From NCBI RefSeq assembly GCF_000166275.1, contig NZ_CM001023.1, positions 1,739,001 through 1,803,000 on the forward strand: a stretch of 64,000 bases of DNA. The letters are read 5' to 3'. The notes beneath the pieces are model-generated. The model did no database searches. It was not told where the DNA came from and was given only the letters and a program-made list of their open reading frames with translations. This document shows, piece by piece, positions 15,204 through 17,413 of the stretch; positions within the stretch are counted from its first letter, which is position 1; the number at the start of each line of letters is the position of its first letter. Source of the DNA: Algoriphagus machipongonensis. GTDB taxonomy: Bacteria > Bacteroidota > Bacteroidia > Cytophagales > Cyclobacteriaceae. A program made the translations under genes and the position numbers.

Positions 15204-15278
15204 CGGGGTGTGGCGCAGTCCGGTTAGCGTACACGTCTGGGGGGCGTGGGGTCGTGGGTTCAAATCCCGCCACCCCGA
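15204..15278 (+). tRNA. tRNA-Pro, anticodon GGG
   Basis: A complete cloverleaf can be drawn: acceptor CGGGGTG/CACCCCG, D stem GCGC/GCGT, anticodon stem CACGT/GCGTG with the 7-nt loop CTGGGGG (anticodon GGG at 15239-15241, G at position 37 as usual for tRNA-Pro), T stem GTGGG/CCCGC with loop TTCAAAT, and discriminator A. CCA is not encoded. It is the only intact copy; eight 3' fragments follow it. Confidence 0.93.
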
Positions 15279-15289
15279 CTAAACATATT

Positions 15290-15316
15290 AGCAGTTCTTC
15301 GGAACTGCTTTTTTTA
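15290..15316 (+). terminator. UUCG-tetraloop intrinsic terminator of tRNA-Pro
   Basis: AGCAGTTC-TTCG-GAACTGCT followed by a T run. The same terminator is repeated after each of the eight downstream tRNA fragments. Confidence 0.92.
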
Positions 15317-15360
15317 TAGAAATAGCAGAAGAATTGTGGACAGTTAACAAATCATAAGCT
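15317..15360 (+). repeat. Short-module spacer with GGACAG/CTGTCC hairpin, copy 1
   Basis: Spacer between the tRNA terminator and fragment 1. GGACAG and CTGTCC (the latter overlapping the start of the next fragment) can pair around an AT-rich loop. Further copies start near 15877, 16437, 16581, 16725 and 17287. In the last, the loop has three changes but the arms are intact. Confidence 0.75.
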
Positions 15361-15422
15361 GTCCGGTTAGCATATCCTGACTGAGGTCAGGAGGGTCGTG
15401 GGTTCAAATCCCGCCACCCCGA
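15361..15422 (+). pseudogene. tRNA-Pro 3' fragment 1 (before nuclease gene 1)
   Basis: Matches the tRNA from its D-loop GTCC to the discriminator A. It lacks the 5' acceptor strand and 5' D stem, and its anticodon arm is replaced by TCCTGAC-TGAG-GTCAGGA. Carries the GCA variant (GGTTAGCATATCC). Followed by a UUCG terminator at 15434-15460. Confidence 0.88.
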
Positions 15423-15538
15423 CTAAACATATTAGCAGTTCTTCGGAACTGCTTTTTTTTAGTTTTTTTAGAAGAAATCAGATAAGCTTTTAAATCGCAA
15501 GTGATCTGGTTCGCTTCAATTTAAAGCAATTATTTTTT

Positions 15539-15778
15539 ATGGAGTTCACCGTGTACATTCTCTTTTCTGATAAACTAGGTAAGTATTATGTTGGGCAAAC
15601 CAAAGACTTAAAAAGTCGGCTTTCAAGGCATAACCAAGGTCGAGAAAGGTTTACAAGAACTGGCTGCCCTTGGAAGCTTATTCATTCGATTTATTGTAGT
15701 AGCAGGAGTGAAGCGATGATTTTGGAAAAAAAGATCAAGAACCTCGGTGCAAAGAGATATTTGGCAAGTCTAGAGTAG
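15539..15778 (+). CDS. GIY-YIG nuclease family protein, copy 1
   Basis: A 79-residue single-domain GIY-YIG nuclease (UvrC N-terminal/YhbQ fold), predicted to cut DNA with one metal ion. Visible motifs: VYIL with Tyr6 (GIY), YYVGQT with Tyr17 (YIG), Arg27 in SRLSRHN, and Glu63 in AMILEKKIK. There is no accessory DNA-binding domain. The leader has a stem (AATCAGAT pairing with ATCTGGTT) but no obvious promoter or Shine-Dalgarno. The final G of its TAG stop is the first base of tRNA fragment 2, so gene and fragment are fused end to end. Identical in protein sequence to copy 2. Confidence 0.9.
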   Translation: MEFTVYILFSDKLGKYYVGQTKDLKSRLSRHNQGRERFTRTGCPWKLIHSIYCSSRSEAMILEKKIKNLGAKRYLASLE

Positions 15779-15839
15779 TCCGGTTAGCGTATCCTGACTG
15801 AGGTCAGGAGGGTCGTGGGTTCAAATCCCGCCACCCCGA
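15778..15839 (+). pseudogene. tRNA-Pro 3' fragment 2 (after nuclease gene 1)
   Basis: 62 nt with the GCG variant (GGTTAGCGTATCC) and the same palindromic replacement of the anticodon arm. Its first base is the last base of the nuclease stop codon. Followed by a UUCG terminator (15851-15876) and a short-module spacer. Confidence 0.88.
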
Positions 15840-15921
15840 CTAAACATATTAGCAGTTCTTCGGAACTGCTTTTTTTATAGAAATAGCAGAAGAATTGTGG
15901 ACAGTTAACAAATCATAAGCT

Positions 15922-15983
15922 GTCCGGTTAGCATATCCTGACTGAGGTCAGGAGGGTCGTGGGTTCAAATCCCGCCACCCCGA
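15922..15983 (+). pseudogene. tRNA-Pro 3' fragment 3 (before nuclease gene 2)
   Basis: 62 nt with the GCA variant, matching fragment 1. Followed by a UUCG terminator (15995-16021) and the leader of nuclease gene 2. Confidence 0.88.
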
Positions 15984-16099
15984 CTAAACATATTAGCAGT
16001 TCTTCGGAACTGCTTTTTTTTAGTTTTTTTAGAAGAAATCAGATAAGCTTTTAAATCGCAAGTGATCTGGTTCGCTTCAATTTAAAGCAATTATTTTTT

Positions 16100-16339
16100 A
16101 TGGAGTTCACCGTGTACATTCTCTTTTCTGATAAACTAGGTAAGTATTATGTTGGGCAAACCAAAGACTTAAAAAGTCGGCTTTCAAGGCATAACCAAGG
16201 TCGAGAAAGGTTTACAAGAACTGGCTGCCCTTGGAAGCTTATTCATTCGATTTATTGTAGTAGCAGGAGTGAAGCGATGATTTTGGAAAAAAAGATCAAG
16301 AACCTCGGTGCAAAGAGATATTTGGCAAGTCTAGAGTAG
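16100..16339 (+). CDS. GIY-YIG nuclease family protein, copy 2
   Basis: The 79-residue product is identical to copy 1, and the gene lies exactly 561 bp downstream of it, so this is a recent duplication of a nuclease-plus-short-module block. All catalytic residues (Tyr6, Tyr17, Arg27, Glu63) are kept. The leader is also unchanged. Its stop codon again shares a base with the following tRNA fragment. I infer the same activity as copy 1; three near-identical genes in 1.7 kb suggest the gene travels with the repeat. Confidence 0.9.
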   Translation: MEFTVYILFSDKLGKYYVGQTKDLKSRLSRHNQGRERFTRTGCPWKLIHSIYCSSRSEAMILEKKIKNLGAKRYLASLE

Positions 16340-16400
16340 TCCGGTTAGCGTATCCTGACTGAGGTCAGGAGGGTCGTGGGTTCAAATCCCGCCACCCCGA
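16339..16400 (+). pseudogene. tRNA-Pro 3' fragment 4 (after nuclease gene 2)
   Basis: 62 nt with the GCG variant. Followed by a UUCG terminator (16412-16437) and a spacer with one base change (GAATTAGCAG). Confidence 0.88.
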
Positions 16401-16482
16401 CTAAACATATTAGCAGTTCTTCGGAACTGCTTTTTTTATAGAATTAGCAGAAGAATTGTGGACAGTTAACAAATCATAAGCT

Positions 16483-16544
16483 GTCCGGTTAGCGTATCCT
16501 GACTGAGGTCAGGAGGGTCGTGGGTTCAAATCCCGCCACCCCGA
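16483..16544 (+). pseudogene. tRNA-Pro 3' fragment 5
   Basis: 62 nt with the GCG variant, in a run of three consecutive 144-bp short modules. Followed by a UUCG terminator (16556-16581). Confidence 0.88.
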
Positions 16545-16626
16545 CTAAACATATTAGCAGTTCTTCGGAACTGCTTTTTTTATAGAATTAGCAGAAGAAT
16601 TGTGGACAGTTAACAAATCATAAGCT

Positions 16627-16688
16627 GTCCGGTTAGCGTATCCTGACTGAGGTCAGGAGGGTCGTGGGTTCAAATCCCGCCACCCCGA
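16627..16688 (+). pseudogene. tRNA-Pro 3' fragment 6
   Basis: 62 nt with the GCG variant, 144 bp after fragment 5. Followed by a UUCG terminator (16700-16725). Confidence 0.88.
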
Positions 16689-16770
16689 CTAAACATATTA
16701 GCAGTTCTTCGGAACTGCTTTTTTTATAGAAATAGCAGAAGAATTGTGGACAGTTAACAAATCATAAGCT

Positions 16771-16832
16771 GTCCGGTTAGCATATCCTGACTGAGGTCAG
16801 GAGGGTCGTGGGTTCAAATCCCGCCACCCCGA
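16771..16832 (+). pseudogene. tRNA-Pro 3' fragment 7 (before nuclease gene 3)
   Basis: 62 nt with the GCA variant, as for the other two fragments that precede a nuclease gene. Followed by a UUCG terminator (16844-16868) with a shorter T run. Confidence 0.88.
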
Positions 16833-16947
16833 CTAAACATATTAGCAGTTCTTCGGAACTGCTTTTTTAGTATTTTTTAGAAGAAATCAGATAAGCTTTT
16901 AAATCGGTAGTGATCTGGTTCGCTTCAATTTAAAGCAATTATTTTTT

Positions 16948-17187
16948 ATGGAGTTCACCGTGTACATTCTCTTTTCTGATAAACTAGGTAAGTATTATGT
17001 TGGGCAAACCAGAGACTTAAATAGTCGGCTTTCAAGGCATAACCAAGGTCGAGAAAGGTTTACAAGAACTGGTTGCCCTTGGAAGCTTATTCATTCGATT
17101 TATTGTAATAGCAGGAGTGAAGCGATGATTTTGGAAAAAAAGATCAAGAACCTCGGTGCAAAGAGATATTTGGTAAGTCTAGAGTAG
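16948..17187 (+). CDS. GIY-YIG nuclease family protein, copy 3 (diverged)
   Basis: A 79-residue GIY-YIG protein that differs from copies 1 and 2 at four positions (K22R, K25N, S54N, A76V), with one further silent change. The catalytic residues Tyr6, Tyr17, Arg27 and Glu63 are unchanged. Its leader also differs in the loop region but keeps the paired segments. Four of the five base changes alter the protein, so constraint on the non-catalytic surface appears weak or the copies are young. The stop codon is fused to fragment 8 in the same way as the other copies. Confidence 0.9.
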   Translation: MEFTVYILFSDKLGKYYVGQTRDLNSRLSRHNQGRERFTRTGCPWKLIHSIYCNSRSEAMILEKKIKNLGAKRYLVSLE

Positions 17188-17248
17188 TCCGGTTTGCGTA
17201 TCCTGACTGAGGTCAGGAGGGTCGTGGGTTCAAATCCCGCCACCCCGA
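17187..17248 (+). pseudogene. tRNA-Pro 3' fragment 8 (last in array)
   Basis: 62 nt. The D-loop part reads GGTTTGCG instead of GGTTAGCG, otherwise like the GCG variant. Followed by a UUCG terminator (17260-17286) and the terminal spacer, whose GTCC at 17331-17334 joins unique sequence. Confidence 0.88.
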
Positions 17249-17413
17249 CTAAACATATTAGCAGTTCTTCGGAACTGCTTTTTTTATAGAAATAGCAGAA
17301 GAATTGTGGACAGTAAACTAATTATAAGCTGTCCCAGCAATGCAGGATTTTCAAACCTGACCCTAGATCATGGGACTTCTTATCCGTATAACTTTAAGAT
17401 TTTAATCCATATT

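What the first reader, a model, noticed from the sequence alone, without database searches (positions are those of the whole stretch)
15204..17334. Tandem array of truncated tRNA-Pro copies interleaved with three GIY-YIG nuclease genes
An intact tRNA-Pro(GGG) is followed by eight 62-nt copies of its D-loop-to-3'-end part, each with the same UUCG terminator, and three near-identical 79-aa GIY-YIG nucleases. None of the copies can fold as a tRNA, because the 5' acceptor strand is missing and nothing in the spacers replaces it. The nuclease genes are fused to the fragments (the last base of each TAG stop is the first base of a fragment). I infer a mobile, self-amplifying element that targets the tRNA-Pro gene while keeping an intact copy at the left end. 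GIY-YIG genes near tRNAs are, from memory, common in Bacteroidota, but I know of no described mechanism for such an array.
Basis: partly seen in the sequence, partly recalled or inferred. Interest (0 to 1): 0.92.

Follow-up and report, generated by a model that had tools for sequence, protein, structure and literature searches.

The report
tRNA-parasitising nuclease cassette with decoy tRNAs
A tiny DNA-cutting-enzyme gene sits between an intact tRNA gene and broken tRNA copies whose anticodon arm has been swapped for a palindrome; the same kind of cassette recurs at many different tRNA genes across the Bacteroidota and looks like a little-noticed family of selfish genes that live on tRNA genes.

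Summary
In detail: an intact tRNA-Pro(GGG), eight 3' fragments, nine identical UUCG terminators and three 79-aa GIY-YIG genes. Tools add four things. (1) It is one of ten such loci in this Algoriphagus genome; all 20 GIY-YIG hits lie at tRNA genes. Across Bacteroidota the association holds in 54 of 65 stretches and in 26 of 31 and 22 of 27 loci; the 11 misses of the first sample form one separate clade. (2) Nuclease clades largely follow tRNA identity: 22 label changes on the tree against 53-63 in 500 shuffles. (3) The partial copies are not plain truncations: the anticodon arm or a loop is replaced by a palindrome. (4) Palindrome arms are 96% identical between species while fourfold sites of the nuclease gene are 35% identical, so the pseudo-tRNA is maintained. 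Best explanation: free-standing homing-type cassettes, each specialised on one tRNA gene, amplified in tandem. The palindrome's role is unknown; a masked target (decoy) is my preferred reading. No cleavage was shown. The listings of ten literature searches held no description that I recognised.

The parts
15204..15279 (+). intact tRNA-Pro, anticodon GGG, head of the array
   Evidence: ARAGORN; Rfam RF00005, 56.9 bits
15290..15315 (+). UUCG intrinsic terminator of the intact tRNA, first of nine identical hairpins (others start 15434, 15851, 15995, 16412, 16556, 16700, 16844, 17260)
15338..15364 (+). spacer with inverted repeat GGACAG/CTGTCC in units without a nuclease gene; exact copies at 15899, 16460, 16604, 16748, a variant at 17308
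   Evidence: sequence; exact search
15358..15423 (+). pseudo-tRNA fragment 1, D loop to 3' end, anticodon arm replaced by TCCTGACTGAGGTCAGGA at 15375
15539..15778 (+). GIY-YIG nuclease gene, copy 1, 79 aa
   Evidence: PF01541 E 8e-17; Y6, Y17, G19, R27, H31, E63 invariant among ten paralogues
15777..15840 (+). pseudo-tRNA fragment 2, overlapping the stop codon of nuclease copy 1; palindrome at 15792
15919..15984 (+). pseudo-tRNA fragment 3, palindrome at 15936
16100..16339 (+). GIY-YIG nuclease gene, copy 2, protein identical to copy 1
16338..16401 (+). pseudo-tRNA fragment 4, overlapping the stop codon of nuclease copy 2; palindrome at 16353
16480..16545 (+). pseudo-tRNA fragment 5, palindrome at 16497
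16624..16689 (+). pseudo-tRNA fragment 6, palindrome at 16641
16768..16833 (+). pseudo-tRNA fragment 7, palindrome at 16785
16948..17187 (+). GIY-YIG nuclease gene, copy 3, 95% identical to copy 1
17186..17249 (+). pseudo-tRNA fragment 8, overlapping the stop codon of nuclease copy 3; palindrome at 17201
17260..17334 (+). last terminator and truncated spacer unit, right end of the array

Best explanation
A free-standing homing-type cassette that lives on a tRNA gene. Unit: an intact tRNA, a terminator, a minimal GIY-YIG nuclease, and on the far side a partial pseudo-copy of the same tRNA whose anticodon arm (or a loop) is a palindrome. Shown here: recurrence at many tRNAs on the same strand, intact tRNA kept, nuclease clade largely matched to tRNA, purifying selection on the nuclease between species, maintained palindrome, cassette-less relatives, near-identical tandem units. 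Inferred: the nuclease cuts its cognate tRNA gene when no cassette is present; repair from a cassette-bearing copy installs the cassette, which carries the missing tRNA half so that the tRNA is rebuilt, while the displaced half becomes the pseudo-tRNA. The repeated tRNA ends and terminators then let unequal recombination (perhaps provoked by cuts) expand the unit to three nucleases and eight fragments. The palindrome most likely removes the cut or binding site from the spare copy, so that it is an uncleavable decoy; this last step is the weakest.
For: Own genome: 20 of 20 GIY-YIG hits lie at tRNA genes, at 10 sites (18 of the 20 loci scanned, the other two are in the window array), among 37 tRNA matches over the cut-off. 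Pieces of the same tRNA lie on the far side. Twelve relatives: 54 of 65 GIY-YIG stretches within 1 kb of a tRNA, all 54 on its strand; the 11 others form one separate clade. Wider: 26 of 31 loci and 22 of 27. Clade follows tRNA identity: 22 changes vs 53-63 in 500 shuffles, nearest relative from another locus at the same tRNA in 65 of 71. Cassette-less state: 27 of 30 tRNA-Pro(GGG) loci examined show no GIY-YIG gene, three of the 27 with under 300 nt of downstream sequence. Different terminators after the intact tRNA and after the last fragment at Asn, Val and one Met site fit an inserted half and a displaced native half. Between species dN is 0.21-0.32 with saturated dS in all nine cross-genome pairs of the Pro clade; median dN/dS 0.05-0.15 in four other clades, over the minority of pairs with unsaturated dS (21 of 78). 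Tandem units 560 of 561 identical. Nearest solved relatives are UPF0213 proteins and the structure-specific nuclease SLX1. The same anatomy in fungal mitochondria is attributed to endonuclease-driven insertion (PMC3630166, passages), and phage SegB, a GIY-YIG enzyme, promotes amplification of a tRNA segment (PMC13096335, abstract and two sections).
Against: No cleavage, homing or transfer was observed. The clade/tRNA match could also arise by vertical descent of orthologous loci, and six of 71 rows break it; for instance the Flavipsychrobacter Val enzyme groups with the Ala clade. The intact tRNA stays next to the nuclease, so something must protect it. The tRNA-Pro 3' allele of carriers also occurs in a relative without the gene (G044), so co-conversion is not proven. 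At Asn, Val and Thr the intact 3' end and the matching part of the fragment are identical, so no foreign 3' half is visible there. Palindrome-bearing fragments follow tRNA-Pro without a GIY-YIG gene within 1.5 kb (L119, L122). Within the window array, copies 1 and 3 differ by 4 non-synonymous and 1 synonymous changes, which shows no constraint. A maintained pseudo-tRNA is not predicted by simple homing.
Confidence: 0.57

Rival explanations
1. Decoy or antitoxin reading: the nuclease attacks the cognate tRNA (RNA or gene) at the anticodon arm; the pseudo-tRNAs, which lie in line with the nuclease gene and sometimes outnumber it, bind it without being cut, like the RNA repeats of type III toxin-antitoxin systems (recalled).
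For: The tRNA body is kept in part and the anticodon arm exactly swapped (Lys 27-43; Val and Pro 29-45); palindrome arms 96% identical against 35% at fourfold sites; eight fragments to three nucleases in the window; at least nine fragments to one nuclease in the 3.2 kb of L087.
Against: No GIY-YIG domain is known to me as a tRNA-cleaving RNase (recalled). Many fragments lack one acceptor strand; at one Met site only the anticodon loop is replaced (36-40). No expression data.
Confidence: 0.17
2. Passenger reading: tRNA genes duplicate in part, hairpin-seeking mobile palindromes land in the spare copies because insertion into the only copy is lethal, and the nuclease gene is an incidental hitch-hiker.
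For: The palindromes are dispersed repeats: 49 CCCGAN{2,10}TCGGG against 22 reversed-pattern controls in this genome, and 18 TCCCGAN6TCGGGA in G161, which has no nuclease hit at 1e-15, though one of its 15 fetched stretches holds a weaker GIY-YIG hit of 5e-13. Some sit in loops of other hairpins: 8 of 32 sites against 0.9 expected, a count that includes ordinary terminators. A palindrome is nested in another (L179).
Against: Arms conserved although synonymous sites are near saturation; nuclease under purifying selection between species; clade follows tRNA identity.
Confidence: 0.15
3. Minimal integrase-mobilised cassettes: a tyrosine recombinase that uses tRNA 3' ends as attachment sites inserts small GIY-YIG circles, giving tandem tRNA 3' ends as in an integron.
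For: In G042 a tyrosine integrase (PF13102, E 2e-18) lies just left of a displaced cassette that starts at tRNA-Thr position 31.
Against: In the window array the ORF list (50 aa or more) shows only the three GIY-YIG ORFs and one ORF over the intact tRNA; the other units read are about 400 bp, too short for an integrase. The mirror form carries 5' fragments (L142, L144). The palindrome would break the attachment core. The G042 case is better read as a later element that split the cassette from its tRNA.
Confidence: 0.07

Closest known systems
Free-standing GIY-YIG homing endonucleases of T-even phages, SegB of T4/T6 (PMC2988022 passages; PMC13096335 abstract and sections 10 and 12)
   Same: GIY-YIG gene without intron or intein, next to tRNA genes; tandem amplification of a segment with tRNA and nuclease by recombination.
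   Different: Chromosomal; enzyme lineages largely sorted by tRNA species; partial tRNA copies with palindromes; 79 aa. tblastn against 50,697 phage records found no relative of the window protein at 1e-6. SegB sequence was not compared.
Mobile endonuclease ORFs that carry a gene's 3' end in fungal mitochondria, Glomus and Allomyces atp6 (PMC3630166 passages)
   Same: Order gene 5' part, inserted 3' end, endonuclease ORF, displaced native 3' end.
   Different: Protein genes in mitochondria, mostly LAGLIDADG in Glomus; here tRNA genes in bacteria, and the displaced end carries a maintained palindrome.
REP palindromes with RAYT transposases (PMC3733652, listings only)
   Same: Short dispersed palindromes in a bacterial genome.
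   Different: The three Y1_Tnp loci of this genome have no TCCCGA or CCTGCC palindrome within 1.5 kb; one has a single CCTGAC match.
tRNA-integrating islands with tyrosine integrases
   Same: Duplicate a tRNA 3' end and keep the tRNA intact (recalled).
   Different: No integrase in the window array; palindromes; mirror form with 5' ends.
UPF0213 and SLX1 GIY-YIG proteins
   Same: Nearest solved relatives by sequence.
   Different: In the 12 genomes the separate tRNA-less clade (11 of 65) has no tRNA within its fetched flanks of about 2 kb; that this clade is UPF0213 itself was not tested.

Membership tests
free-standing homing endonuclease gene | nuclease domain with catalytic residues, under selection | tested here: met
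   PF01541 E 8e-17; Y, Y, G, R, H, E invariant in ten paralogues; between-species dN/dS well below 1 where dS is not saturated; the two diverged copies inside the window array show no constraint
free-standing homing endonuclease gene | stable association of each enzyme lineage with one target gene | tested here: met
   22 label changes vs 53-63 shuffled; 65 of 71 nearest neighbours; vertical descent not excluded
free-standing homing endonuclease gene | cassette-less alleles exist at the same site in relatives | tested here: met
   27 of 30 tRNA-Pro(GGG) loci without the gene, three of them cut short by contig ends; upstream 97-aa gene matched in 18 of the 30 loci, own one included
free-standing homing endonuclease gene | host gene function preserved | tested here: met
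   intact tRNA at all ten sites of the own genome; exception: in A. algorifonticola the tRNA-Pro(GGG) is broken
free-standing homing endonuclease gene | co-conversion of flanking sequence | tested here: inconclusive
   carrier tRNA-Pro allele differs from the commonest non-carrier allele at five places between 46 and 67, but G044 has it without the gene
free-standing homing endonuclease gene | cleaves the cassette-less allele; biased inheritance | not testable with these tools
   needs enzyme assay and crosses
group I intron endonuclease (TIGR01453) | score above the curated cut-off | tested here: not met
   24.7 bits vs 56.05 for the window protein; 19.3 for a Lys-type one
REP/RAYT system | palindromes flank the Y1 transposase gene | tested here: not met
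   no TCCCGA or CCTGCC palindrome at the three Y1_Tnp loci; one CCTGAC match in L220
tRNA-integrating island | integrase within the element | tested here: not met
   ORF list of the window array: three GIY-YIG ORFs and one ORF over the intact tRNA; other loci were only read by eye
type III toxin-antitoxin system | RNA repeats neutralise a toxic endoribonuclease encoded beside them | not testable with these tools
   repeats and nuclease are adjacent; activity unknown
SegB family | sequence similarity to SegB beyond the GIY-YIG domain | not tested
   no SegB sequence was fetched

The most novel reading that the evidence does not exclude
A new kind of module: a family of minimal GIY-YIG nucleases in which each clade attacks one tRNA (gene or RNA) at its anticodon arm, kept with purpose-built pseudo-tRNAs in which exactly that arm is exchanged for a palindrome, so that they act as uncleavable decoys or operators that restrain the enzyme; tandem amplification sets the ratio of decoy to nuclease.
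Probability: 0.2. Interest if true: 0.93.

Novelty: new variant of a known kind. Interest (0 to 1): 0.82.

Why it matters
If right, tRNA genes in much of a phylum carry selfish nuclease genes that rebuild the tRNA they invade, with enzyme lineages sorted by tRNA. It would explain many of the small GIY-YIG genes by tRNAs in Bacteroidota genomes, give a bacterial counterpart of the mitochondrial gene-end-carrying endonucleases and of phage SegB, and offer many natural enzyme-target pairs for studying how a 79-aa domain finds one tRNA gene. The palindrome that replaces a tRNA arm and stays conserved while the gene beside it nears saturation is unexplained and can be tested directly.

Tried and rejected
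Assembly error: rejected; single-contig genome and the same anatomy in other genomes.

Relocated cassettes as proof of transposition: first thought strong, since L099 and L266 begin at tRNA position 31, then rejected for L099/L276 because a tyrosine integrase adjoins and intact tRNA-Thr lies on another contig. For L266, L083 and L098 I saw no recognisable integrase among the ORFs listed (100 aa or more; 80 or more for L098) in 1.4-1.9 kb to the left, judged by eye without a family search; unresolved.

RAYT as mover of the palindromes: no TCCCGA or CCTGCC palindromes at the three Y1_Tnp loci, one CCTGAC match.

Nuclease as sole mover of the palindromes: genomes with a hit at 1e-15 have more TCCCGAN6TCGGGA (70 genomes, total 344, control 9, median 2) than those without (78 genomes, total 99, control 16, median 0), Mann-Whitney p 3e-7, but phylogeny was not corrected, palindromes inside cassettes were not taken out, and G161 (18) and G135 (19) have many without a hit. 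In the genus, first-look candidate numbers and palindrome counts correlate at 0.58 over 59 genomes, and at 0.32 over the 43 of 3.3 Mb or more.

Nuclease clade versus palindrome family covariation: looked suggestive by eye (in G000 Leu/Arg: CCTGCC; Pro: CCTGAC; most others: CCCGA) but may follow from shared descent; not claimed.

Phage origin: no match in phage records at 1e-6; one weak 20-residue match in IMG/VR. Only the window protein was used in both.

Literature: ten searches listed no paper that I recognised as describing tRNA-bound GIY-YIG cassettes of Bacteroidota or these palindromes. Opened: PMC13096335 (abstract, two sections), and passages found by term in PMC1564403 (a GIY-YIG superfamily survey with no occurrence of 'bacteroid' and no passage on tRNA-bound genes among those shown), PMC3630166 and PMC2988022. 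The others were seen as listings.

Weak points of counts: one search gives 73 of 101 rows with a palindrome flanked by tRNA sequence on at least one side, but at least five of these (two L004 rows, L096, L195_1846, L190_1501) are terminators or the native arm; both-sided rows 41, one of them L190_1501. One search kept only tRNAs of 78 nt or less with both anchors found: 22 distinct segments. One search used 25 rows chosen because they have a clear palindrome; decayed ones (L167_3638, L186, L083) were not in it, and its Asn pair is not saturated (17 of 22 fourfold sites identical). Rows for the trees came (121 rows; stretches under 181 nt left out); under-66-aa rows dropped (119), then one row per locus and tRNA (95, of which 76 carry a tRNA label), with L105 and L190 relabelled Ala by hand. 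In one search only 150 of 381 candidates were scored. In one search, 42 of 60 genomes matched and 30 loci were examined.
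Full report
What is there. Window 15204-17334 holds an intact tRNA-Pro(GGG), nine copies of one UUCG terminator, eight tRNA-Pro 3' fragments and three 79-aa GIY-YIG genes, all on the + strand. Units are of two sizes, 144 bp (fragment, terminator, spacer) and 416-417 bp (fragment, terminator, nuclease). One 561-bp doublet is repeated at 560 of 561 and the longest exact repeat found is 634 bp, so at least this step of the amplification looks recent. 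Each fragment runs from the D loop to the 3' end, but tRNA positions 29-45 are replaced by TCCTGACTGAGGTCAGGA, a 7-bp palindrome with a 4-nt loop, in all eight. The fragments cannot be tRNAs: no 5' acceptor strand and no anticodon arm of their own; only the intact copy is called.

The same thing elsewhere in the genome. The window lies in a 4.79-Mb single-contig genome whose close relatives are Algoriphagus (record titles). A search with the nuclease finds 20 matches, all at tRNA genes, at ten sites: Pro 3, Thr 4, Asp 4, Met 3 and 1, Asn, Leu-TAA, Leu-CAA, Val and Arg 1 each (18 of the 20 loci were scanned, the other two lie in the window array, whose third nuclease is 1.67 kb from the tRNA). 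Two of the 20 are short or broken. At nine sites the order is intact tRNA (two copies at Asp and Val), terminator, nuclease, and then tRNA debris, which BLAST recognises as a 3' fragment of the same tRNA except at the Met site of L008, where it is heavily degraded; at Arg the nuclease precedes the intact tRNA and a broken copy lies upstream. Further tRNAs without a nuclease hit (Lys, Ala, two Ser, Arg-ACG) also have partial copies. At Asn, Val and one Met site the terminator after the last fragment differs from that after the intact tRNA, as expected if the cassette brought its own tRNA end and terminator and displaced the native ones.

Relatives. In twelve near-complete genomes of the genus, 54 of 65 GIY-YIG stretches lie within 1 kb of a tRNA, all 54 on the same strand and nearly all just downstream; the remaining 11 form one separate clade with no tRNA within the fetched flanks of about 2 kb, a natural negative control. 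A pattern scan of genome contigs gave 31 loci, 29 titled as Bacteroidota (Algoriphagus, Aquimarina, Flavobacterium, Chitinophagaceae and others), one as Sumerlaeota and one as Rickettsiales MAG; 26 have a tRNA within 700 nt. Of the other five, three lie at contig ends, one (L161) is 0.5 kb from a contig end, and one is the A. algorifonticola locus with a broken tRNA-Pro. In a phylum sample 70 of 148 genomes have a match at 1e-15; of 27 newly fetched loci 22 have a tRNA within 1 kb and 19 show tRNA fragments; of the five without, three are within 300 nt of a fetched end. Starting from the tRNA instead, 3 of 30 tRNA-Pro(GGG) loci in the genus have the nuclease, so the cassette is patchy.

Target specificity. 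A tree of the nucleases groups them largely by tRNA. With one row per locus and tRNA (76 labelled rows, 19 labels) 22 changes of label are needed (18 is the least possible), against 53-63 in 500 shuffles; the nearest relative from another locus has the same tRNA in 65 of 71 rows. One supported group (99/86) holds the Val enzymes of Algoriphagus and Flavobacterium, together with Flavobacterium Pro-TGG enzymes; the Val enzyme of Flavipsychrobacter falls with the Ala clade instead. Target-specific enzymes predict such sorting; long vertical descent would give much the same picture and was not excluded. Between species the genes are under purifying selection: saturated dS with dN of 0.21-0.32 in the Pro clade, median dN/dS 0.05-0.15 in the Lys, Ala, Met and Leu clades over the 21 of 78 pairs with unsaturated dS; no Thr pair was usable. 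Inside the window array copies 1 and 3 differ by 4 non-synonymous and 1 synonymous changes, i.e. no visible constraint.

The palindromes. With anchors taken from the tRNA on either side of the anticodon arm, and no reference to palindromes, 22 distinct segments were cut from pseudo-tRNAs: 19 have a stem of 7 or more (mean 6.9 against 3.0 in shuffles), none keeps the native arm, and 14 read TCCCGA-N-TCGGGA. The exchange is exact for the whole arm in Lys (27-43), Val and Pro (29-45), and limited to the loop at one Met site (36-40); T arms and T loops are hit in the same way. Across 25 rows in seven clades the 6+6 arm bases are identical in 484 of 504 comparisons, while fourfold sites of the neighbouring nuclease genes are identical in 261 of 745 (rows chosen for having a palindrome). 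The pseudo-tRNA is therefore maintained or constantly renewed, not a decaying relic. Palindromes of this family also occur dispersed, some in loops of other hairpins, and in G161, which has no nuclease hit at 1e-15 (one of 5e-13 lies beside one of its palindromes). Their mover is unknown. In A. algorifonticola the only tRNA-Pro(GGG) match has its T arm replaced by such a palindrome.

How it most likely works. I commit to a homing-type cassette (0.57): a nuclease cuts its cognate tRNA gene, repair installs the cassette, a carried tRNA half rebuilds the tRNA, and the displaced half stays as pseudo-tRNA. The mirror form in Aquimarina, where 5' fragments with a replaced T arm precede the nuclease and the intact tRNA follows 9 nt after it (in L141 ARAGORN calls such a fragment a tRNA although its T arm is the palindrome), obeys the same logic. 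Expansion follows from repeated tRNA ends and terminators. Cutting, transfer and the role of the palindrome are inference. Precedents: Glomus and Allomyces mitochondrial genes rebuilt by an endonuclease element with the native end displaced (PMC3630166, passages), and SegB, a GIY-YIG enzyme that promotes amplification of a tRNA segment in phage T6 (PMC13096335, abstract and sections 10 and 12).

What does not fit. The intact tRNA beside the nuclease should be a target too; a relative without the gene shares the carriers' tRNA allele; fragments occur without a nuclease next to them; and conservation of the palindrome calls for a function that homing does not supply. Hence the decoy reading is kept as the novel case (0.2).

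Novelty. As a whole, a new variant of a known kind (free-standing homing endonuclease cassettes), with a part, the palindrome-armed pseudo-tRNA, that I cannot match to anything known to me or recognised in the listings of the ten searches named under Tried and rejected. On checking, the confidence in the homing reading was lowered from 0.58 to 0.57 because the Val enzymes proved less cleanly grouped than first written.

Noticed in passing
   Followed up: partly
L082:1225-1300 (same place as L139, A. algorifonticola): The only tRNA-Pro(GGG) match of this genome has its T arm replaced by TCCTGACAAAGTCAGGA, so the gene looks dead.
   Followed up: partly
L266:1889-4752: Eight tandem GIY-YIG copies headed only by the 3' part of a Met-type tRNA; no intact tRNA called in 7.5 kb.
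   Followed up: partly
L055 (own genome, tRNA-Ser GCT): Tandem 5' fragments of tRNA-Ser with a palindrome in the D loop, upstream of the intact gene, without a nuclease hit there.
   Followed up: no
L087:800-1320: Five tandem tRNA-Lys pseudo-copies (positions 1 to 59-67) with TCCCGATTTTGATCGGGA in place of the anticodon arm, upstream of the intact tRNA-Lys.
   Followed up: partly
L224 (own genome 3757724 and 3758671): TCCCGA palindromes at the same place in two similar, coding-looking sequences.
   Followed up: no
L076, L078, L223, L225 (own genome): A dispersed repeat with a CCTAGGGTT-type hairpin has palindromes in its loop.
   Followed up: partly
window 17331-17376: Inverted repeat GTCCCA/TGGGAC at the right end of the array.
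   Followed up: no
L116, L131, L133: Relatives without the cassette have repeated TTTGCAC-type motifs after tRNA-Pro, perhaps ends of integrated elements.
   Followed up: no
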